Made by a program: the position numbers and the translations under genes. A stretch of 64,000 nucleotides of DNA, taken from IMG/VR virus record IMGVR_UViG_3300020198_000887, positions 1-64,000 of that record. One strand, given 5' to 3'. The stretch is from a virus. The notes under the pieces were generated by a model. It ran no database searches. It was not told the origin of the DNA and was given only the letters and a program-made list of their open reading frames with translations. This document shows, in pieces, positions 1,180-58,277 of the stretch (position 1 is its first letter; every line of letters begins with the position of its first letter).

Positions 1180-1196
1180 ACATATATAGATTAAAA

Positions 1197-1277
1197 GGAT
1201 AGCTACAGCATCAACCAAATTACAGGTTCGATTCCAGTCCCTATAATGGGACTGCTTAACTGGTAAAGCATCTATCC
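1197..1277 (+). ncRNA. Y-RNA-like / circularly permuted tRNA mimic (element E1)
   Basis: The ends pair as GGATAG (1197-1202) with CTATCC (1272-1277). Inside, in this order, are a T-arm (ACAGG / TTCGATT / CCAGT, 1222-1238), a closed acceptor-like hairpin (CAGTCCC - TATAAT - GGGACTG, 1235-1254) and a D-arm (GCTT / AACTGGTA / AAGC, 1254-1269). The 3' half of a tRNA thus precedes its 5' half, with the acceptor stem capped by a loop. This is the layout known for the tRNA-like module of bacterial YrlA Y RNAs, whose 5' and 3' ends form the Ro60-binding stem. The T-stem and the acceptor-like stem overlap by a few bases, so the exact fold is uncertain. It directly follows the cluster promoter. Confidence 0.6.
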
Positions 1278-1334
1278 TGATGAAGATTTATTGCGTTATG
1301 GCGATATGGAGAAATTGGTAAACTCAGCAGACTT

Positions 1335-2023
1335 ATGAAATTGAGCACACGTGATAGAAACACCCGGGTGAATGTACTTAAATTCGGTGAACTCTTAACA
1401 GGTAATGCTGATGACAATACCGAGCTAAATTTTGGATTGTATGTTACGACCTCTATATGTTGGGGTAAATGCATGACAGTTTGGACATAGTAATCGTAGA
1501 TTCGATAATTCATTATTTGTATTATCACCATCTATGTGATCTAATTCAAGCGAAATTGGTTTAGATAACCATTCGGATAAATTACAAGATGAACATATTG
1601 GGTTAAAAACCCCATTATTAAGTAATTTTATTTTTAATTTATATGAATGGATAGTTGAACCCTTTTGTAGATATTCTTCAATTGGTTTTGATCTTTCTGG
1701 AAATTTTCTTCCACCTAGATTCTGTCCAGTGAAATGACTAGTATCTAAATTAAAATGTTTTATAGCACGTTTCAATGTGGTATAATTCCCACCAGCTGGT
1801 GCAACATTTAATTTTTGTAATACTTGTCTTAAAGATACAGAAGTAACAACAGCGTTTTGTAAATCAGTTAACGTGTATTTAAATAGTTTCATAAAATAAT
1901 CCATTAGAAGTGTAGAGACTTAACAGGTACTACCTACGTTGTATTTATGCAATATGGTAAAGATAAAGTCCAGACCACAAACTATGTTTACTAAATATAG
2001 GTAGTGAAAACTATAGTGGTACG
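1335..2023 (+). other. Group I intron in tRNA-Leu(UAA), with endonuclease insert
   Basis: A 689-base intron obeying group I rules: the last exon base is U (1334) and the last intron base is G (2023). Core elements visible are P (AATTCGGTGAA), Q (AATACCGAGC), R (TGTAGAGACTTAACAGG) and S (AAAGTCC). The P7 pairing is GACTT (1917-1921) with AAGTC (1966-1970). An HNH endonuclease gene lies antisense between Q and R. Confidence 0.88.
1425..1904 (-). CDS. HNH homing endonuclease inside the tRNA-Leu intron
   Basis: A 159-residue protein encoded on the strand opposite to the intron. The N-terminal half looks like a DNA-recognition region (LTDLQNAVVTSVSLRQVLQKL, an AsnC/HTH-like start). The C-terminal half is a classic HNH module: CSSC zinc knuckle, LELDHIDGDNTNNELSNLR and LLCPNCH. 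Such enzymes cut intron-free alleles so that the intron is copied into them. The antisense orientation separates endonuclease expression from tRNA transcription. Its 3' end reaches the intron core just after element Q. Confidence 0.9.
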   Translation of the reverse strand: MDYFMKLFKYTLTDLQNAVVTSVSLRQVLQKLNVAPAGGNYTTLKRAIKHFNLDTSHFTGQNLGGRKFPERSKPIEEYLQKGSTIHSYKLKIKLLNNGVFNPICSSCNLSEWLSKPISLELDHIDGDNTNNELSNLRLLCPNCHAFTPTYRGRNIQSKI

Positions 2024-2080
2024 AAAATCTGCCGTCGAAAGACTTCCCGGTTCGAGTCCGGGTATCGCTACCAAACAAAT

Positions 2081-2230: not shown

Positions 2231-2419
2231 CTGTATAAATATTATATTCAACAACATATAGAATGGTATGAAATATACAAAGAAGTTGGGTTTGACGAGT
2301 TTGTAAGAAGAACTGGGTATAATTATTCAAAACCAAATTTAGTAACAGCATTTTCTAAATTAGTTCCGAATTTTATTCCACAAAACGGTAAGAAAAGATA
2401 TTCCCCTGTAGCTCAGTAG
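2216..2419 (+). CDS. Hypothetical protein, possibly N-terminally truncated
   Basis: The stretch EWYEIYKEVGFDEFV and the C-end KLVPNFIPQNGKKR read like a genuine small phage protein. The only start is a TTG inside element E5 with no Shine-Dalgarno, and the last codons run into the tRNA-Asn gene. No function is recognised. It may be the 3' remnant of a longer gene disrupted when RNA elements were inserted. Confidence 0.4.
   Translation: MKKRILYKYYIQQHIEWYEIYKEVGFDEFVRRTGYNYSKPNLVTAFSKLVPNFIPQNGKKRYSPVAQ
2234..2241 (+). promoter_or_regulatory. T4-type late promoter (TATAAATA)
   Basis: An exact TATAAATA, the -10-like box recognised by T4 gp55-family late sigma factors. It abuts element E5 and precedes the tRNA-Asn gene. 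Confidence 0.5.
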
Positions 2420-2670
2420 GTAGAGCAGTTGACTGTCAAAAGGCAGCTTCTATTGGAAACAATAGTTGAAAAATCCATCAAATTCGGTGAAACCTAAAAT
2501 CGTATGAATATGGCAATACCGAGCCAAGCCTGGAAATAGGAAGGTGTAGAGACTAGACGGTGGAGACCTAAGTTCATAAGAATATGGTCGTGGTATAGTC
2601 CAGAGAGTAATGAAAATTGCACAAATCTGTAATCAATTGGTCGGCGGTTCGAGCCCGTCCGGGGGAGCCA
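2402..2670 (+). tRNA. tRNA-Asn(GUU), interrupted by a group I intron
   Basis: Exon 1 is 2402-2436 and exon 2 is 2630-2670. Acceptor TCCCCTG/CGGGGGA, G73 and CCA (2668-2670). D-arm GCTC/GAGC, T-arm GGCGG/CCGTC. Splicing after U2436 and G2629 gives loop CTGTTAA, anticodon GUU. A naive reading of GTC (Asp) ignores the U-exon/G-intron rule. Confidence 0.88.
2437..2629 (+). other. Compact group I intron in tRNA-Asn(GUU)
   Basis: A 193-base intron between anticodon bases 35 and 36. It holds P (AAATTCGGTGAAACC), Q (AATACCGAGCC), R (GTGTAGAGACTAGACGG) and S (TATAGTCC). P7 is GACTA (2551-2555) with TAGTC (2596-2600), compensatory to GACTT/AAGTC in the Leu intron. It carries no endonuclease. Likely related to the Leu intron but at a different anticodon position. 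Confidence 0.88.
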
Positions 2671-3798: not shown

Positions 3799-3908
3799 GG
3801 ATACATTCAGCAAATCTAAAGCACCCTAGATGTCGTAGGTTCAAATCCTACATTCTCATAATGAGAATTAGCTCAGTTGGTAGAGCGCCAGGCTAAAAAC
3901 ACGTATCC
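3799..3908 (+). ncRNA. Y-RNA-like / circularly permuted tRNA mimic (element E2)
   Basis: The ends GGATAC (3799-3804) and GTATCC (3903-3908) pair. Inside, in permuted order: anticodon-stem 3' strand CCTAG (3825-3829), a 5-base variable loop, perfect T-arm GTAGG / TTCAAAT / CCTAC (3835-3851), acceptor strand ATTCTCA (3852-3858), linker TAA, acceptor strand TGAGAAT (3862-3868; 7 of 7 pairs), T8-A9, perfect D-arm GCTC / AGTTGGTA / GAGC (3871-3886), and anticodon-stem 5' strand CCAGG (3888-3892) followed by CT. This matches the architecture described for bacterial YrlA RNAs, where the tRNA-like module has a capped acceptor and the anticodon side continues into the Ro60-binding stem. It ends just upstream of the ppiC ribosome site. 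Confidence 0.75.
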
Positions 3909-3931
3909 GGTTTTAATTACACGAGGCAAAC

Positions 3932-4592: not shown

Positions 4593-4677
4593 GCTGAAGT
4601 GACAGAATGGTTATGTACCGGTCTGCAAAACCGTAATTCCGAAAGGTAGTGTGGGTTCGTCCCAATCTTCAGCTCCA
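4593..4677 (+). tRNA. tRNA-Cys(GCA) with enlarged variable loop
   Basis: Acceptor GCTGAAG/CTTCAGC (7 of 7), U73 and encoded CCA (4675-4677). The D-arm region GGTTATGTA matches bacterial tRNA-Cys. Anticodon loop CTGCAAA. The variable region is about 16 bases (can pair TTCC/GGTA), unusual for Cys. Confidence 0.85.
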
Positions 4678-5234: not shown

Positions 5235-6746
5235 ATGACTACATTCGTAGAAGACGCACGAGAACAAGAATCACGCATATCAAATGGGGTGGCTGCTCAT
5301 AAGACCACTACCAATAAAGCAGTGGATTTATTCTTTAATATTGGTGCAAGTAGAGGAAAGGACATTATTCCAGCGTTTACCGCAGCATATGCGGAAAACA
5401 AAGATCTAGCACTTCGTATTGCATTATGGGCGCGTGATGCTCGAGGTGGTGCAGGTGAACGTAAATTGTTCAGAGATATTCTTGTGCATTTAGAAACTGT
5501 TGACACCGATGCTGCAAAAGCATTAATTAATAAAACAATATTGGTAGGAAGGTGGGATGACTTATTAGTGTTTAAGACACCGGAATTGCAACAAGTGGCT
5601 TTCACTAAAATTAAAAACACACTTGTTGCAGGAATACAAGCTAAATCATTATTAGATAGATTTGATGCAATGACTGAAGAAGAAACACTAAAACAAAAAC
5701 TTCAATCACAAATATTCGAAGCAAAATTAGTTGCAAAATGGATGCCTCGTGAAAACTCGGCAAAAAGAAAAATTGCTCAAAAATTAATTAAATTTTTTGG
5801 ATGGTCGCCAAAATATTATCGTAAAACATTGGTTTCATTGACTTCGGTGGTTGAAAACAAAATGTGTGCGAATGATTGGGATAATATTAACTTCAGTCAT
5901 GTTCCATCTTTAGCTAGCTCACGTTATAAAAAAGCGTTTAATCGTCATACACCAAAATTTGCTGAATATGTACAATCATTGATCAACGGTGAACCAACTG
6001 TCAAAGTCAATGCTGGTGCAGTATACCCATATGATATTATTAAAGGAATTGGTATATATGGGTATGATAAAACTGAAAATGCCCATATCGTTGCACAATG
6101 GGATTCTCTTCCAAATTATGTAGGTGATGCTAATATTTTACCTTTGGTTGATGTTAGTGGGTCTATGCAGTGTAGAGCTGGTGGTAATAAATCCAACTCA
6201 GATGTCACGTGTATGGATGTAGCAGTATCCTTGGGGTTATATATAGCTAATAAAAATTCTGGTAAATTTAAAGATACCTTTATCACGTTTAGTGAAACCC
6301 CTGAATTGCGCACATTGCGTGGTAATATTGTGGAAAAAGCAACACAAATGATTGCCTCAAATTGGGGTATGGGAACTAATTTACACGCTGCATTTGACTT
6401 GATTTTAGACGTAGCAACCAAGTTTGATGTTCCACAAAGTGAAATGCCAGAAATGCTACTTATTCTGACGGATATGCAATTTAATTGCTGCACACATTAT
6501 GATGATAGTGCAATTAAAATGATTGAACGTAAGTATACCGCAGCTGGTTATAACACCCCGTTGGTTGTATTTTGGAATATCAATTCATCTGATAACGTCC
6601 CAGTGAAAGCAGACAAATCAGGTGCAGCATTGGTTTCAGGGTTTAGTTCTGCTATCGTTAAATCATTATTGGCAGCTGATATGGGTAATTTCACACCAGA
6701 AGGCATTTGTCTTAACACAGTAATGATTGATAGATATACTATTTAA
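5235..6746 (+). CDS. Ro60/TROVE-like vWA protein (DUF2828-type)
   Basis: 503 residues with a strong AGGAGA ribosome site. Residues 1 to about 280 are helical repeats of the kind that build the Ro60 ring (LALRIALWARDARGGAGERKLF, KLIKFFGWSPKYYRK). Residues about 300-480 are a von Willebrand A domain with a MIDAS metal site DVSGSM at 306, a distal threonine region (GMGTNLHAAF) and LILTDMQF. This repeat-ring plus vWA architecture is that of Ro60/Rsr and the related DUF2828 family. Ro60 binds misfolded small RNAs and Y RNAs, and bacterial Y RNAs are usually encoded next to rsr. Here permuted tRNA-like elements lie just upstream, which supports an RNA-chaperone role, but RNA binding itself is inferred. 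Confidence 0.75.
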   Translation: MTTFVEDAREQESRISNGVAAHKTTTNKAVDLFFNIGASRGKDIIPAFTAAYAENKDLALRIALWARDARGGAGERKLFRDILVHLETVDTDAAKALINKTILVGRWDDLLVFKTPELQQVAFTKIKNTLVAGIQAKSLLDRFDAMTEEETLKQKLQSQIFEAKLVAKWMPRENSAKRKIAQKLIKFFGWSPKYYRKTLVSLTSVVENKMCANDWDNINFSHVPSLASSRYKKAFNRHTPKFAEYVQSLINGEPTVKVNAGAVYPYDIIKGIGIYGYDKTENAHIVAQWDSLPNYVGDANILPLVDVSGSMQCRAGGNKSNSDVTCMDVAVSLGLYIANKNSGKFKDTFITFSETPELRTLRGNIVEKATQMIASNWGMGTNLHAAFDLILDVATKFDVPQSEMPEMLLILTDMQFNCCTHYDDSAIKMIERKYTAAGYNTPLVVFWNINSSDNVPVKADKSGAALVSGFSSAIVKSLLAADMGNFTPEGICLNTVMIDRYTI

Positions 6747-43259: not shown

Positions 43260-44819
43260 ATGGTAGAGCCAAGTAACGAACTAGAAGAAGTTTTCAGTAA
43301 AGCTGCAGATACCGTAAAAAAACTACACCATGAATATATAACAATAGAACATGTATTGTTCGCTATGTTATCAAACCAAAGGTTTGTTGATATAATTAAT
43401 AATTTCGGTTCAAACGCAGAAGACTTACGAAAACTGGTTACAAACCACTTGCAAACTAAATGCGAGGACATTACGACCACCGAACAAGTTACCCACCCAA
43501 AGAAAACAGCCGCGTTTGAACGGCTGCTAAATAAAGCATTTACACAAGTAATTTTTAATAATCGACAACGTGTGGAAATCACTGATGCCTTTTTAATGAT
43601 GTTAAATGAAAAACGTAGTTGGGCATTTTTCTACATTTCACAAGTTGGTATTGAAAAAGAAAAATTTGCTGATTATTTAAATACAACAGCAGATGCGGCC
43701 GATGAAGAAGCCCCAGATGAGCTTGACCCCCGCCACATTAAATCGTTACAAGCATATACAACTGACCTCAACGACCAAGTGTTGAAAGGAAAAATAGACC
43801 CAGTGATTGGACGAGTTGATGAACTTGAAAATATCGCATTGGCACTTGGTCGCCGATCTAAAAACAACGTGATTTTAGTTGGGGACCCAGGTGTTGGTAA
43901 AACTGCGATTGCAGAAGGTCTTGCATACAATATTGTAAATGGTGGAGTTCCAGATTTTTTGAAAGATTATACTGTTTATAATTTAGATATATCGGCAATG
44001 CTTGCCGGAACAAAATATCGGGGTGATTTTGAAGAACGCTTTAAACAAGTAATTAAAGCACTTGATAAAAAAGGAAAAACAGTTCTTTTTATTGATGAAG
44101 CACATATGATCAGTGGTGCAGGTGCATCGGCAAGTTCAGCAAATGACCTTGCTAATATGATGAAACCTGCACTAAGCAAGGGTAATATTAAAGTCATTGC
44201 ATCAACTACTTGGGAAGAATATCGCAAACACTTTGAAAAAGATCGCGCATTAATGCGTCGATTCCAACGTATTACGGTCGATGAACCATCACAAGAAATG
44301 ACTTTAAAAATCTTAAAAGGATTAAAAAAATATTATGAATCACATCATAATGTAAAAATTAAAACTGATGCATTGCAATCTTCAATAAAATTGTCAGTAA
44401 AATATCAAGCTGATAAAAAACTGCCAGATAAAGCAATTGATTTAATTGATTGTGCCTGTTCACGATTCAATTTAAAATTGGCGGATGACCGAATTATTAC
44501 AGAACGTGAAATTCAATATGAATTAGCGAAAATGATTAATATTCCAGAAGAACAAATTATGGAAACTGAGAGTAATACATTAGTCGATTTGCAAGAAAAA
44601 CTTGAAGCAGATGTTTACGGTCAAGATGCTGCGTTAACTGAAGTGGTTGATAAAATTATAGTTGCACAAGCCGGGTTAAAACCAGATAATAAACCAATCG
44701 GGTCTTTTGTATTTATGGGTCCAACCGGCTGTGGTAAATGTTTAAGTTACGATCAAGAAATAACTTTACAAATTCCCCAAGATATGTACAATTTTGCTAT
44801 CAAAAATAACTTAATTTAG
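43260..44819 (+). CDS. clpA: ClpA-type unfoldase, N-terminal part, ending in an N-intein
   Basis: 519 residues. Clp N domain (EEVFSKAADTVKKLHHEYIT), full first AAA+ module (Walker A GDPGVGKT near 207, LFIDEAH, arginine-finger ALMRRFQ), then the start of the second AAA+ module. At residue 493 the Walker A loop GPTGCGK is cut by Cys494, the first residue of an intein (CLSYDQEITLQIP). Translation stops 26 residues later (TAG). The rest of intein and protein is made from the next gene, so a working enzyme needs trans-splicing. Partner of ClpP at 12334. Confidence 0.93.
   Translation: MVEPSNELEEVFSKAADTVKKLHHEYITIEHVLFAMLSNQRFVDIINNFGSNAEDLRKLVTNHLQTKCEDITTTEQVTHPKKTAAFERLLNKAFTQVIFNNRQRVEITDAFLMMLNEKRSWAFFYISQVGIEKEKFADYLNTTADAADEEAPDELDPRHIKSLQAYTTDLNDQVLKGKIDPVIGRVDELENIALALGRRSKNNVILVGDPGVGKTAIAEGLAYNIVNGGVPDFLKDYTVYNLDISAMLAGTKYRGDFEERFKQVIKALDKKGKTVLFIDEAHMISGAGASASSANDLANMMKPALSKGNIKVIASTTWEEYRKHFEKDRALMRRFQRITVDEPSQEMTLKILKGLKKYYESHHNVKIKTDALQSSIKLSVKYQADKKLPDKAIDLIDCACSRFNLKLADDRIITEREIQYELAKMINIPEEQIMETESNTLVDLQEKLEADVYGQDAALTEVVDKIIVAQAGLKPDNKPIGSFVFMGPTGCGKCLSYDQEITLQIPQDMYNFAIKNNLI
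44739..44816 (+). other. N-terminal half of an atypically split intein (26 aa)
   Basis: Begins with Cys1 and block-A-like CLSYDQEITL, ends before TAG 44817-44819. Most split inteins have N-halves of about 90-120 residues; 26 is like the atypical AceL/VidaL type. Confidence 0.85.
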
Positions 44820-44849
44820 TAAAATGTTCTAAAATTACAAGAGGTCTAT

Positions 44850-45260
44850 ATGATTACAACTACAATACCAATTGGTAAATTTTTTACAATACTTGAACAA
44901 TATGAAAAACTTCATTTTGAACCAGAACAAGAACAATTTTTAAATTCAACGGTTAGAATTCCGGATGAGAATGGTAATTGGATCCAAGTTACTGCTGCTA
45001 TCACAAAACAGGACGATGGATTGTCAATTAAATTTAATAATGGTGATGAAATTAAGGCGGCCCGTAAACATTTAGTGTATGATGGGAATTCATGTGTATT
45101 TCTTGAATCGTTAAACATAGGAGACCATATTCAGAAAGCAACAGGTGAAATTATAGAAGTTGTATCAATTGACACAATTTCTGATAAGACTTTTTTTGAT
45201 TTGACCGTGGATTCGGATACACATTTATATCAAACAAGTAATAAAATTATACACCATAAT
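44850..45260 (+). other. C-terminal half of the split ClpA intein (137 aa)
   Basis: Ends in His-His-Asn at 45252-45260 with Thr as the +1 nucleophile. It contains most of the intein fold, including GDEIKAARKHLVYDG and LNIGDHIQKATG. Confidence 0.88.
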
Positions 45261-46043
45261 ACGGAAACTGCAAAAGCATTGGCAAAACACCTTGGTTCTA
45301 CCCTGGTACGATTTGATATGTCCGAATACCAAGAAAAACATAGTGTTAGTAAACTAATCGGTTCACCACCAGGTTATGTTGGGTTTGAAGAAAATGCTGG
45401 GTTGTTGATTACACAAATTCAAGAACACCCAAACGCAGTATTGTTGTTAGATGAAGTTGAAAAAGCACATCCTGATGTTGCAACAGTGTTATTACAAGTA
45501 ATGGATAATGGATTTATTACTGGGTCAAATGGAAAGAGGGCGGATTGTCGTAATATCGTATTAATTTTAACAACCAATGCTGGTGCACAATCCGCTGAAA
45601 AAAATGCAATTGGTTTTGGTAAACAAGATAAGGATTATTCGGATGAAGATTTGAAAAAATTCTTTACGCCAGAATTTAGAAATAGATTAGATGGTATTAT
45701 CACATTTAATAAACTTGGAAAAGACTCAATGACAAAGGTAGTTAACAAATTTATTGATGAACTACGCGAACAAGTAAAGGAAAAATCAATACGTATAAAA
45801 ATAACAAAGGATGCATCTAACTGGTTGTTAGAAAATGGGATTGACCCAAAAATGGGTGCCAGACCACTGCAGCGTGTTATTGATAAAGAAATTAAGCGAA
45901 ATCTTGCTAAAATGATGTTGTTTGGTGATTTAAAAAATGGTGGCATACTAACAATTGGTGTTGACAACGATAATATTTCACTGACAGCTGCATCAAACAA
46001 TATTAAAACAATCTCGTCAGAAGACATTGAAATGGTTATGTAA
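44850..46043 (+). CDS. clpA: C-intein plus ClpA-type unfoldase C-terminal part
   Basis: 397 residues with its own ribosome site (AGAGGT). Residues 1-137 are the C-intein, with FFDLTVDSDTHLYQ (block F) and the end KIIHHN. Thr138 (+1) then continues Walker A as TETAKALAKHLG, followed by LLDEVEKAHPDV, the sensor and arginine-finger region and C-terminal PKMGARPLQRVIDKEIKR. Splicing to the upstream half restores GPTGCGKTETAK. The gap between the two genes is only 30 bases, without an endonuclease. Confidence 0.93.
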   Translation: MITTTIPIGKFFTILEQYEKLHFEPEQEQFLNSTVRIPDENGNWIQVTAAITKQDDGLSIKFNNGDEIKAARKHLVYDGNSCVFLESLNIGDHIQKATGEIIEVVSIDTISDKTFFDLTVDSDTHLYQTSNKIIHHNTETAKALAKHLGSTLVRFDMSEYQEKHSVSKLIGSPPGYVGFEENAGLLITQIQEHPNAVLLLDEVEKAHPDVATVLLQVMDNGFITGSNGKRADCRNIVLILTTNAGAQSAEKNAIGFGKQDKDYSDEDLKKFFTPEFRNRLDGIITFNKLGKDSMTKVVNKFIDELREQVKEKSIRIKITKDASNWLLENGIDPKMGARPLQRVIDKEIKRNLAKMMLFGDLKNGGILTIGVDNDNISLTAASNNIKTISSEDIEMVM

Positions 46044-54380: not shown

Positions 54381-54536
54381 ATGGGAATTAACAAAGACTA
54401 CGACTTTGAAGCATGTGAAACTTGTCCACCACTTTACGAATTTGCAGCTAGGTGTTCATGTAAAATAGAAGACGTACTGGTAGATATATCAAAAGAACTC
54501 AATGAAGGTATCTCTTTATGGGAGGATTCTGAATGA
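54381..54536 (+). CDS. Small Cys-rich protein, 51 aa
   Basis: Contains CETC and CSC knuckles that could hold zinc, then a short acidic helix. GGAG precedes the ATG, and its stop overlaps the polymerase start (ATGA), so it is translationally coupled to DNA polymerase. No family recognised. Confidence 0.65.
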   Translation: MGINKDYDFEACETCPPLYEFAARCSCKIEDVLVDISKELNEGISLWEDSE

Positions 54537-57175
54537 GTTACGTAGATGCAATGTTTGACCGCGATTCGGACTTCATCAAAGTGGTAGAACGAATTAATGG
54601 AAAACGGGTATTCAAAGAATACCCAGTACGCCATACATTTTATTATGAAGATACCCGTGGTAAATATAAATCCATTTATGATACACCAGTCACAAAGGTA
54701 GTATGCAAAACAACCAAGGACTTCAGAAAAGAATTATCAATTAACAACAATAAAAAATTGTTTGAAGCTGATTTAAATCCAGTGTTTGTATGCCTAAGTT
54801 CCCAATATCAACATCAGGATCCCCCATCCCTAAATGTAGCGTGGCTCGACATTGAAGTGCGATTTGACCCAGAACGTGGCTATGCATCACCAGATGATGC
54901 ATTTATGCCAATTACTGCGGTCGCGGTTCATTTACAATGGCTAGATACTCTTATATGCCTTGCCGTCCCCCCACCAACATTGACAATGGATGAAGCAGTC
55001 CTGTTGGTGGAAGAATTTCCGAATACACACTTATTCAACACAGAAGCAGAATTATTAGATGCATTTTTGGATCTAATTAAAGATGCTGATGTATTAAGTG
55101 GGTGGAATAGCGAAGGGTTTGATATTCCATATCTCGTAAACCGGGTCACAAAGGCATTGAGTAAAAATGATACTCGTAGATTTTGTTTATGGAATCAATT
55201 CCCAAAACGCAGGGAATATGAAAAATATGGTAAAGAGGCCGTCACGTATGACTTAGTCGGGCGAGTTCATTTAGATAGCTTAGAATTATACAGAAAATAT
55301 ACCTATGAAGAACGGCATAGCTATCGGTTAGATGCTATTGCAGAATATGAATTGGGTGATAGAAAAACTGCATATGAAGGAACGTTAGACCAATTATATA
55401 ACAATGATTTTAAAAAATTTATTGAATATAATAGGCAAGATACCATGCTGTTAGAAAAACTTGACAAAAAATTAAAGTTTTTAGATTTAGCAAATGCAAT
55501 TGCACATGAAAATACTGTATTATTACAAACTACAATGGGCGCGGTCGCTGTTACTGAGCAAGCAATTATAAATGAAGCACATGACAGAGGATTCGTTGTA
55601 CCAAATCGTAATAGACAAGATACAAATGACGGTATGGCGGCTGGAGCATATGTTGCACACCCTAAAGAAGGGATACATGATTGGATCGGTTCCCTTGACA
55701 TTAATTCACTATACCCATCAGTTATTCGAGCATTAAATATGGGGCCAGAAACCATTGTTGGGCAACTATCACCCGCAATGTCTAACTCTTTTTTAAAAGG
55801 TCAATTAGCAAAAGGCAAATCAATTACCGCTGCGTGGGAAGGACGATTTGGTTCGTTGGAATATGATGCTGTTATGAATCGTGAGGTTGATACTTATATA
55901 ACAATCGAATGGGAAGAAGGCGGTTCGGATACAATTAGTGCAGCTAATATTTATAAATTAATTTATGAGTCAAACCAACCATGGATGCTGAGTGCTAATG
56001 GCACTATTTTTACACATGAACGGGAAGGTATCATACCAGGATTATTGAAACGATGGTATTCTGAACGTAAAGAGATGCAGAAAAAATTAAAAGAAGCCAT
56101 TACTTCAGGCGACAAAGAACAAGAAGAATACTGGGATAAACGACAACTAGTCAAAAAAATTAATTTGAATAGTTTATACGGTGCTATTCTTAATCAAGGC
56201 TGTCGGTTTTTTGATAAGCGAATTGGTCAATCAACTACACTAACTGGTAGACAAATTGCCAAACATATGGCAGCAGAAGTGAATAAAATTATTACTGGTG
56301 AATATAATCATGTTGGGAAATCTATTATATATGGTGATAGTGTAACTGGTGATTCAATGATTATATCCAACCAAGGTAGAATTACTATCGAGGAGTTATT
56401 TAATCGGTGTAATAACAACTACACATCAGGATCAAAAGAATATGGTAACAACGACGATATAACAGTAATGGGGTTTACTAATTCACCAGAAATGTGTAAT
56501 ATTCATTATGTAATGAGGCATTATACAACCAAAGATTTGTATGAAATAACATTAGAGAATGATAAACAAATTACTGTAACACAAGATCATAGTATAATGG
56601 TTATTAGAAATAATAGTATGATTGAATTAAAACCTACTGACATATCTGAATCAGATCTGTTTATATGCTTATCAAATGATATGAAAGAAGTAGAATTAGT
56701 ACAATATAAACAAATTGTCTGTAAAGGTTCAATTACTGATTATGTTTATGATATAAGCATCAATGGTGATAACCATATGTTTTTTGCGAATGAATGTTTA
56801 GTTCATAATACTGATAGTTGTTCTGCTGATACTATTATTAGAAGTAATTGGGGAGATTTGACCATTGAACAGCTATTCAATGCTGGTCAAATGTTTAGTA
56901 ATGAACAGACGGAACATGGTGTTAAGGAATACTCTTCTCATATGGACTTACAAGTGGTTTCATATGATGATTCTACTAATCAATCATATTATGGAAATGT
57001 AAATTACATCTATCGTCATAAAGTTTCAAAAGAACGCTGGGAGATAGAAGATGAACTTGGTCACAAAATAGTAGTGACTGGTGATCATTCAATAATGGTT
57101 GAGCGTAATGGTAAGTTGATAGAAATAAAACCACGGGATATTTTAGATACTGATATATTAATATGTCTTAATTGA
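54533..57175 (+). CDS. Family B DNA polymerase, N-terminal part with 1.5 inteins
   Basis: 880 residues. Exonuclease motifs WLDIEV, GWNSEGFDIPYL and YNRQDT; polymerase motif A SLDINSLYPS and motif B KKINLNSLYGA. Motif C YGDTDS is broken twice: after YGD (residue 602) by a full intein (157 aa, Ser1 to VHN), then Thr-Asp, then a second intein beginning SCSADTIIRS whose N-half (119 aa) ends at TGA 57173. The polymerase is finished by the gene at 57294. Both splicings are needed to rebuild the metal-binding aspartates, so activity depends on protein splicing. Confidence 0.95.
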   Translation: MSYVDAMFDRDSDFIKVVERINGKRVFKEYPVRHTFYYEDTRGKYKSIYDTPVTKVVCKTTKDFRKELSINNNKKLFEADLNPVFVCLSSQYQHQDPPSLNVAWLDIEVRFDPERGYASPDDAFMPITAVAVHLQWLDTLICLAVPPPTLTMDEAVLLVEEFPNTHLFNTEAELLDAFLDLIKDADVLSGWNSEGFDIPYLVNRVTKALSKNDTRRFCLWNQFPKRREYEKYGKEAVTYDLVGRVHLDSLELYRKYTYEERHSYRLDAIAEYELGDRKTAYEGTLDQLYNNDFKKFIEYNRQDTMLLEKLDKKLKFLDLANAIAHENTVLLQTTMGAVAVTEQAIINEAHDRGFVVPNRNRQDTNDGMAAGAYVAHPKEGIHDWIGSLDINSLYPSVIRALNMGPETIVGQLSPAMSNSFLKGQLAKGKSITAAWEGRFGSLEYDAVMNREVDTYITIEWEEGGSDTISAANIYKLIYESNQPWMLSANGTIFTHEREGIIPGLLKRWYSERKEMQKKLKEAITSGDKEQEEYWDKRQLVKKINLNSLYGAILNQGCRFFDKRIGQSTTLTGRQIAKHMAAEVNKIITGEYNHVGKSIIYGDSVTGDSMIISNQGRITIEELFNRCNNNYTSGSKEYGNNDDITVMGFTNSPEMCNIHYVMRHYTTKDLYEITLENDKQITVTQDHSIMVIRNNSMIELKPTDISESDLFICLSNDMKEVELVQYKQIVCKGSITDYVYDISINGDNHMFFANECLVHNTDSCSADTIIRSNWGDLTIEQLFNAGQMFSNEQTEHGVKEYSSHMDLQVVSYDDSTNQSYYGNVNYIYRHKVSKERWEIEDELGHKIVVTGDHSIMVERNGKLIEIKPRDILDTDILICLN
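56339..56809 (+). other. Complete mini-intein in DNA polymerase motif C
   Basis: 157 residues from Ser1 (SVTGDSMI, block A) through TVTQDHSIMV (block B, His) and DYVYDISINGDNHMFF (block F) to CLVHN, +1 Thr. No endonuclease domain. Inserted between the two halves YGD and TDS of the catalytic motif. Confidence 0.93.
56816..57172 (+). other. N-half of a split intein in DNA polymerase motif C
   Basis: 119 residues from Ser1 (SCSADTIIRS, aligned to SVTGDSMII of the first intein) with VTGDHSIMV block B. Separated from the first intein by only the Thr-Asp codons 56810-56815. Confidence 0.92.
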
Positions 57176-57181
57176 TAATTC

Positions 57182-57328
57182 GATAAGAGAAATAGTGCTA
57201 TCCGTCAAGGATTCGATGTATATGTTATTTGGGAATCTGATTGGAATAAAAATAAAAATAGTATAATAGAAAATATAAAAGATTGGTGGAATAATGGCAA
57301 TAACAAAACTAAAAATCAAATCAATTAA
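57182..57328 (+). pseudogene. Remnant of a Vsr-like homing endonuclease
   Basis: An open frame without a start codon reading RNSAIRQGFDVYVIWESDWN and ending at TAA 57328, overlapping the C-part gene. The VYVIWESDWN block followed by a helix is typical of the C-terminal end of Vsr/EDxHD-type homing endonucleases described at fractured, intein-split phage genes. The catalytic N-terminal domain is gone, so only the tail of the mobile element remains. Confidence 0.65.
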
Positions 57329-57425
57329 ACATCTAGGCAATTTTGATGATGAATACGTATATGACATTGGGATGAAAAATGAAGCACATCCTTGGTTTTT
57401 TGGGAATAATATTTTAATTCATAAT
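57294..57425 (+). other. C-half of the split polymerase intein (44 aa)
   Basis: A typical-size C-intein with block F (YVYDIGMKNEAHPWFF) and His-Asn end; +1 Ser. Confidence 0.92.
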
Positions 57426-58277
57426 TCCTGTTATTTCTCAGCATATTCTACGTTAAAAACTGATATTGACAATGGGACTATTCCGTGGAGTAAAGAAGAT
57501 ATATCTGCATTCTACGATGGAATAGGAAACCTGGTAAATGGTACCTTTCAACGATTTATGCTAGATGCATTTAACTGCCCTGCATCACGGGGTGAAGTTA
57601 TCAAAGCAGGGCGTGAAATCGTTGGGGTTAAGGGATTATTTATTACCAAAAAACGGTATGCAGTGTTAGTATATGATAAAGAAGGTAAACGAAAAGACAC
57701 CAATGGTAAACCTGGTGAAATCAAAGCAATGGGGTTGGATTTAAAGAGATCAGATACCCCAGAATACATGCAAACATTTTTAAGTGACGTCCTTGAAATG
57801 GTATTAGATGGGGTACCAGAATCCGAGGTATTAGATACAATTAAAAATTTTAGATCTAGTTTCAAAGCATTGGATGGGTGGGAAAAAGGATCACCTAAAC
57901 GTGCTAATAATATAACTAAATATCAAAAATTAGAAGAAAAACATGGAAAATCTAATTTACCAGGCCATGTTAGAGCCAGTATAAATTGGAATACCTTGAA
58001 AAGAATTTTTAATGACAAATATTCCATGAATATTACAGATGGTGCAAAAGTAATTGTGTGCAAATTAAAACCAAATCCATTGGGTTTCACAAGTGTAGCA
58101 TATCCAGTAGATGAATTAAGATTGCCGCAGTGGTTTAAAGATTTGCCGTTTGACCACGATGAAATGGAAGCTACCATAATTGACAAAAAGGTAGAAAACT
58201 TGATTGGTGTTCTTAACTTAGATTTACAAAGTACCAATGAAAAAACTACCTTCAGTAAATTGTTTTTCTTCAAATAA
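57294..58277 (+). CDS. C-intein plus DNA polymerase C-terminal part
   Basis: 327 residues. Residues 1-44 are the C-intein (DDEYVYDIGM block F, ending NNILIHN at 57425). Ser45 is the +1 residue; the protein continues CYFSAYSTLKTDI, completing YGDTDSCYFSAY after splicing. Further are KKRYAVLVYD, GLDLKRSDTPEYMQ and the thumb, ending with LFFFK, a possible clamp-interaction tail. The ATG lies inside the endonuclease remnant with GGTGG upstream. Confidence 0.94.
   Translation: MAITKLKIKSIKHLGNFDDEYVYDIGMKNEAHPWFFGNNILIHNSCYFSAYSTLKTDIDNGTIPWSKEDISAFYDGIGNLVNGTFQRFMLDAFNCPASRGEVIKAGREIVGVKGLFITKKRYAVLVYDKEGKRKDTNGKPGEIKAMGLDLKRSDTPEYMQTFLSDVLEMVLDGVPESEVLDTIKNFRSSFKALDGWEKGSPKRANNITKYQKLEEKHGKSNLPGHVRASINWNTLKRIFNDKYSMNITDGAKVIVCKLKPNPLGFTSVAYPVDELRLPQWFKDLPFDHDEMEATIIDKKVENLIGVLNLDLQSTNEKTTFSKLFFFK

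What the first reader, a model, noticed from the sequence alone, without database searches (positions are those of the whole stretch)
2402..2670. Second, endonuclease-free group I intron splitting tRNA-Asn between anticodon bases 35 and 36
I do not know this insertion site from established bacterial tRNA introns. The P7 helices of the two introns differ by compensatory changes (GACTA/TAGTC versus GACTT/AAGTC), supporting both folds and common ancestry with transfer to a new site. Correct splicing changes the apparent identity from Asp to Asn.
Basis: partly seen in the sequence, partly recalled or inferred. Interest (0 to 1): 0.75.

Follow-up and report, generated by a model that had tools for sequence, protein, structure and literature searches.

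The report
Self-splicing intron inside phage asparagine tRNA
A large bacterial virus carries an asparagine-tRNA gene split inside its anticodon by a 193-base self-splicing (group I) intron, and the same split at exactly the same place recurs in at least ten other virus fragments and some twenty bacterial genomes, so it is a real, widespread and apparently undescribed intron site rather than an oddity of this phage.

Summary
A group I intron (Rfam RF00028, 59.5 bits, E 1e-13) occupies window 2437-2629 (193 nt, no ORF) and splits a tRNA gene at 2402-2670 between anticodon bases 35 and 36. P1 is CUGU|C-AAAA-GGCAG with a U2436·G2443 wobble, the last intron base is G2629, and the joined exons give a 76-nt tRNA-Asn(GUU) with G73 and encoded CCA. 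Pattern scans found the intron at the identical site in 33 further loci (phage contigs; betaproteobacteria, Patescibacteria, Planctomycetes, Bacteroidetes, Cyanobacteria MAGs). On 28 aligned copies 82% of helix cells pair (at most 41% when slid), and the anticodon stem covaries across the intron. Of 20 bacterial genomes carrying it, 17 show no intact tRNA-Asn, against 20 of 93 control genomes, so these introns very probably splice in vivo. The site is recurrent, not singular. Splicing itself was not tested. New variant (insertion site and phage host) of a known kind.

The parts
2402..2436 (+). 5' exon of tRNA-Asn (35 nt), ending in anticodon bases G34 U35
   Evidence: sequence; boundary by P1 U-G wobble and by 33 same-site loci
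2437..2629 (+). group I intron, 193 nt, no ORF; first base C2437, terminal omega-G at 2629
   Evidence: RF00028 59.5 bits E 1.1e-13 at 2420-2622; boundaries computed
2630..2670 (+). 3' exon of tRNA-Asn (41 nt) beginning with U36, discriminator G73, encoded CCA
   Evidence: sequence; spliced molecule is tRNA-Asn(gtt) by ARAGORN
2433..2446 (+). P1: exon CUGU + C2437 pairing with internal guide GGCAG 2442-2446; U2436-G2443 wobble at the 5' splice site
   Evidence: the U-G pair is kept in all 26 sequences with letters there
2450..2465 (+). P2 hairpin CUAUUG-GAAA-CAAUAG
   Evidence: 96% of cells paired, all 6 pairs covary
2474..2479 (+). P3 5' strand UCCAUC, pairs with 2559-2564 GGUGGA
   Evidence: 58% of cells paired, probably lowered by misalignment
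2484..2545 (+). P4-P6 domain: P4 2484-2488/2518-2522, P5 2493-2494/2512-2513, P6 2523-2525/2543-2545, P6a 2529-2531/2538-2540
   Evidence: P4 95% paired with changes on both sides in all 5 pairs
2551..2600 (+). P7 GACUA 2551-2555 / UAGUC 2596-2600 (guanosine-binding helix), with P8 2565-2568/2586-2589 between
   Evidence: P7 100% paired, one pair AU/UA compensatory
2607..2620 (+). P9 hairpin GUAAU-GAAA-AUUGC
   Evidence: 73% paired
1300..2073 (+). companion: tRNA-Leu(UAA) gene split at 34/35 by a 689-nt group I intron
   Evidence: ARAGORN with introns allowed
1425..1904 (-). HNH endonuclease gene inside the tRNA-Leu intron (P6 region), opposite strand
   Evidence: PHROG 10822 HNH, E 4.3e-48; Pfam HNH_3 E 1.7e-4, 21.6 bits, below cut-off

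Best explanation
It is a small, ORF-less, self-splicing group I intron lodged in the anticodon of a phage tRNA-Asn gene. Inferred mechanism: the phage tRNA cluster is transcribed; the exons pair as the anticodon stem while the intron folds (P3-P9); guanosine bound in P7 attacks after U2436, marked by the U-G wobble in P1; the freed U35 attacks after G2629; the exons join to give mature tRNA-Asn(GUU) with its own CCA, which helps decode AAU/AAC codons during infection. Shown here: the fold, the splice-site elements, the reconstituted tRNA, and recurrence at the identical site. Inferred: that splicing occurs, by analogy with tested tRNA group I introns and because most bacterial carriers show no other tRNA-Asn. 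The intron is most likely a tolerated mobile element belonging to a family that occupies several anticodon-loop positions in phage tRNA genes; this copy either lost its endonuclease or never had one.
For: RF00028 at E 1.1e-13. U-G at the splice site and omega-G. Identical site CTGT|TAA in 33 other loci, all giving tRNA-Asn(gtt) when joined. Covariation: 293 two-sided changes against 106+-9 in shuffles, 82% of cells paired against at most 41% when slid by 1-3 columns; anticodon stem across the intron 96% paired with changes on both sides. The minimum-energy fold of the pre-tRNA alone recovers the acceptor stem, anticodon stem, P1, P2, P3, P4, P8 and P9 (z -2.4). Intact tRNA-Asn found in 3 of 20 carrier bacterial genomes against 73 of 93 others, Fisher p 1.5e-7. 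A same-site copy in L149 holds a LAGLIDADG gene (84 bits), showing a route of mobility for this site. Phage tRNA-Asn genes similar to the joined exons without the intron are common.
Against: No RNA data; splicing not shown. P10 is weak or absent by eye. P3 and P8 pair poorly in the 28-sequence alignment (58% and 50%), which I put down to misalignment but did not prove. Carrier genomes are mostly MAGs and may miss genes. The same-site loci were found by a pattern that fixes the 5' exon and guide, so the 35/36 position was selected by the search; the 3' exon register was not fixed by the pattern, but my filter required a TAA, TGA or TAG start after a G, and a matching stem.
Confidence: 0.93

Rival explanations
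1. A decayed, no longer splicing intron that has turned the phage tRNA-Asn into a pseudogene.
For: No endonuclease; P10 weak; no intact tRNA-Asn was found in the record by pattern, but a phage can rely on host tRNA.
Against: Every core element and the acceptor, D, anticodon and T arms are intact; relatives in other phages keep the same pairs by compensatory change.
Confidence: 0.06
2. The intron was copied within this genome from the tRNA-Leu intron a few hundred bases upstream.
For: Both are group I introns of the same broad tRNA type; the AU test does not reject a sister pair (p 0.55).
Against: Core identity 67.5% to the neighbour against 84% to tRNA-Asn and 81% to tRNA-Met introns of other phages; different P9 type; the full-intron tree places each window intron with same-site introns of other phages (though the guide sequence contributes to that).
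Confidence: 0.05
3. All tRNA-Asn 35/36 introns descend from one ancient insertion, inherited in bacteria and picked up by phages.
For: The full-intron tree keeps most Asn introns apart from Leu and Met introns; monophyly is not rejected (AU p 0.28).
Against: The core-only tree mixes phage Asn introns with phage Leu, Met, Arg and Lys introns and sets bacterial Asn introns apart; grouping nine phage Asn introns together is rejected (AU p 0.02). Repeated colonisation fits better.
Confidence: 0.25
4. The intron is kept because it benefits the phage, for instance by hiding the anticodon loop from host anticodon nucleases until splicing, or by timing tRNA release.
For: Only the position inside the anticodon and repeated occurrence in phage tRNA clusters.
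Against: No data; the same site is used in bacterial genomes, and a selfish element explains the pattern.
Confidence: 0.08

Closest known systems
Group I introns of bacterial and plastid tRNA genes (tRNA-Leu(UAA) of cyanobacteria, tRNA-fMet(CAU), tRNA-Ile(CAU) of Azoarcus, tRNA-Arg(CCU))
   Same: Small group I intron in the anticodon loop; U-G at the 5' splice site; exons pair as the anticodon stem
   Different: Here the host gene is tRNA-Asn(GUU), the position 35/36 and the genome a phage's. The passages I read of PMC4033280, PMC8450103 and PMC5733544 name other tRNAs and no Asn
Phage group I introns (T4 td, Twort, Bastille types; PMC3984707)
   Same: Phage-borne group I intron; core similar to a stretch between two capsid CDS pieces in Pelagibacter phage HTVC120P (77% over 99 nt)
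   Different: Those described sit in protein genes; PMC3984707 (2014) states that all phage introns then known did. PMC5746245 (2017) claims the first interrupted phage tRNA, a possible artefact in its authors' own words
tRNA-Leu(UAA) intron of uncultured huge phage LR756501 (735 kb)
   Same: Same core, 72% over 150 nt; phage tRNA gene
   Different: Position 34/35, tRNA-Leu, longer P9 region
Same-site tRNA-Asn introns in IMG/VR contigs L045 and L047
   Same: Same tRNA, position, guide (CAAAAGGCAG), P2 and P9 type; 80-84% core identity
   Different: Longer P6; other contigs, no detectable homologues of 13 tested window proteins except an HNH fragment in L045

Membership tests
Group I intron | Catalytic core P3-P9 with conserved P7 and P3/P7 pseudoknot | tested here: met
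   RF00028 above gathering score; P7 100% paired over 28 copies, covariation over the whole structure
Group I intron | U-G wobble at the 5' splice site in P1 | tested here: met
   U2436-G2443, invariant where aligned
Group I intron | Terminal guanosine (omega-G) | tested here: met
   G2629 precedes the 3' exon; the other copies also end in G, but my filter required that
Group I intron | Guanosine-dependent self-splicing | not testable with these tools
   needs RNA
Subgroup IC3 (bacterial tRNA type) | Subgroup-specific peripheral structure | tested here: inconclusive
   Resembles tRNA introns of this kind; no subgroup model was available, only the general RF00028
tRNA-Asn(GUU) | Cloverleaf with anticodon GUU, G73 and CCA after splicing | tested here: met
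   ARAGORN on the joined exons; sequence
Mobile (homing) group I intron | Encoded homing endonuclease | tested here: not met
   No ORF in 2437-2629; same-site copy L149 has LAGLIDADG_2

The most novel reading that the evidence does not exclude
Phage tRNA genes carry a large, barely described family of group I introns that colonises every anticodon-loop position following a U: 34/35 in Leu(UAA) and Arg(UCU), 35/36 in Asn(GUU) and Lys(UUU), 36/37 in Met(CAU), Asn and Arg. tRNA-Asn 35/36 has been entered more than once and is shared with bacterial genomes, where the split gene is often the only tRNA-Asn.
Probability: 0.6. Interest if true: 0.6.

Novelty: new variant of a known kind. Interest (0 to 1): 0.5.

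Why it matters
Reviews held here state that phage group I introns sit in protein genes and that bacterial tRNA introns are few and in other tRNAs. A recurrent tRNA-Asn site shared by phages and bacteria, with an endonuclease-bearing copy in one phage, points to phages as carriers of tRNA introns. It also means that standard tRNA finders miss or misname such genes: ARAGORN calls this one tRNA-Tyr, or nothing when introns are off, so the tRNA content of phages and candidate-phyla bacteria is undercounted.

Tried and rejected
Phage BLAST hits over the intron core turned out to be intron-like sequence elsewhere (capsid region of HTVC120P) or a tRNA-Leu intron. The first Asn pattern mostly matched ordinary tRNA-Asn (99 of the places tallied read GACTGTTAATC) and was replaced by one excluding GACTGTT. 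A first test for intact tRNA-Asn in carrier genomes (0 of 20) was discarded because the pattern found only 14 of 145 in the control phylum; the wider pattern was used instead. IQ-TREE topology tests were run to settle descent and mostly could not. A search for relatives of the neighbouring 503-aa protein in viral contigs gave none, though one turned up later in L149.

Full report
What is there. The window is the first 64 kb of a 142,294-base virus record. Its clamp loader is 57.6% identical to that of the 286-kb Pseudomonas phage PA5oct group and 46-49% to Sinorhizobium Phosso and Agrobacterium Atu_ph07, so the record is probably part of a jumbo-phage genome. A tRNA cluster lies near its start. 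Rfam finds a group I intron at 2420-2622 (59.5 bits, gathering score 50, E 1.1e-13) and ARAGORN, with introns allowed, finds interrupted genes at 1300-2073 (Leu) and 2402-2670.

Exact anatomy. By reading the splice elements, the 5' exon is 2402-2436, the intron 2437-2629 and the 3' exon 2630-2670. The exon end CUGU and the first intron base C pair with GGCAG, placing a U-G wobble at the splice site; the intron ends in G; the exons joined are a 76-nt tRNA-Asn(GUU) with G73 and CCA. The intron holds no ORF. The minimum-energy fold of the pre-tRNA by itself forms the acceptor stem, the anticodon stem across the intron, P1, P2, P3, P4, P8 and P9.

More than chance. A pattern fixing only the tRNA-Asn 5' half and the guide GCAG, and excluding ordinary tRNA-Asn, was scanned over viral and genome contigs. 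With a filter for a matching 3' exon it gave 33 further loci with the intron at the identical place, after leaving out the window's own copy and one false hit. Ten are virus contigs (L010, L027, L035, L037, L043, L045, L047, L080, L149, L164; L037 and L080 carry the same intron) and 23 are genome contigs: betaproteobacterial, Patescibacteria, Planctomycetes, Bacteroidetes and Cyanobacteria MAGs. L437 is a further virus copy with another D-arm. All 34 joined genes, the window's included, are called tRNA-Asn(gtt). On 28 aligned copies, 82.2% of cells pair (at most 40.5% with the partner slid by 1-3 columns), 293 cells change on both sides (106+-9 in shuffles), the anticodon stem made by the two exons is 96% paired and covaries, P7 is 100% paired, and P1's U-G is invariant where aligned.

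Does it splice? Not tested. Indirect evidence: in 20 bacterial genomes carrying this intron an intact tRNA-Asn was found in 3, whereas the same pattern found one in 73 of 93 control genomes from two of the same groups (Fisher p 1.5e-7). From general knowledge, tRNA-Asn(GUU) is essential, so most carriers very probably depend on splicing. MAG incompleteness lowers but does not remove the force of this. For the phage copy itself, splicing is inferred from intact core and exons.

Origin. The P7 difference is as stated. But the best core matches of the Asn intron are Asn introns of other phages (L047 83.8%, L045 80.3%) and a phage Met intron (80.7%), and the neighbour is at 67.5%; the P9 region is the short type seen in phage Met and Asn introns, not the long Leu type. 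With the guide left out, about 120 columns do not resolve the tree: neither a pair of the two window introns (AU p 0.55) nor monophyly of all Asn introns (p 0.28) is rejected, though a clade of nine phage Asn introns is (p 0.02). So deep kinship among phage tRNA introns is likely, local transfer is not supported, and repeated entry into this site is plausible.

Wider family. A pattern of the intron core found 33 viral loci, nearly all in tRNA anticodon loops: Leu(UAA) at 34/35, Met(CAU) at 36/37, Asn at 35/36 and, by my reading of single loci, Lys(UUU) at 35/36 (L424), Arg(UCU) at 34/35 (L409) and at 36/37 (L432) and Asn at 36/37 (L413). In L149, from a 232-kb virus contig, the same-site Asn intron is 844 nt long and encodes a LAGLIDADG_2 protein (84 bits); that contig also carries a relative of the window's 503-aa DUF7788 protein (41%) and of its HNH protein (46%).

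Literature. PMC3984707 (2014) says all phage introns seen to that date were in protein genes; PMC5746245 (2017) presents a doubtful interrupted tRNA as the first in a phage; the passages read in PMC4033280, PMC8450103 and PMC5733544 name bacterial tRNA introns in Leu, fMet, Ile, Arg, Gly and Lys but not Asn; [quoted passage not shown] PMC8172020 mentions undetailed tRNA introns in candidate-phyla genomes. I found no description of tRNA-Asn 35/36, but most subscription journals are not covered.

Verdict. Confirmed; ordinary in kind, new in host gene, site and genome type. Interest is moderate: the site is widespread, and splicing at it is directly testable.

Noticed in passing
window 3807-3913: YrlA-like RNA (a bacterial Y RNA with tRNA mimicry), RF02553 at 36.5 bits, E 1.9e-5, below the gathering score of 69; reads as a 3' tRNA half followed by a 5' half.
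   Followed up: partly
window 1191-1280: By eye a second tRNA mimic with T-loop before D-arm and GGATAG/CTATCC closing ends, possibly another Y RNA or permuted tRNA; not hit by Rfam.
   Followed up: no
window 5235-6746: 503-aa protein, PHROG 850 RNA-binding protein (E 1e-134), Pfam DUF7788 and DUF2828, near the Y-like RNA: possibly a phage-encoded Ro/Y-RNA pair. A relative lies in L149 (41%).
   Followed up: partly
window 1300-2073: tRNA-Leu(UAA) intron with its HNH gene on the opposite strand inserted in P6; the intron is missed by Rfam at the gathering score and at E 0.5.
   Followed up: partly
L149:4843-5454: LAGLIDADG_2 endonuclease gene inside a tRNA-Asn 35/36 intron of a 232-kb virus contig.
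   Followed up: partly
L424, L409, L432, L413: Group I introns in phage tRNA-Lys(UUU) 35/36, tRNA-Arg(UCU) 34/35, tRNA-Arg(UCU) 36/37 and tRNA-Asn 36/37 (read by eye).
   Followed up: partly
window 4593-4674: tRNA found by Rfam (39 bits), anticodon apparently GCA (Cys) by eye, but missed by ARAGORN.
   Followed up: no
window 43260-46043 and 54533-58277: ClpA-like protein and DNA polymerase reading frames look interrupted by inteins.
   Followed up: no
L002:1478-1670: Intron core-like sequence between two capsid CDS pieces of Pelagibacter phage HTVC120P: the same intron type may also sit in a protein gene.
   Followed up: no
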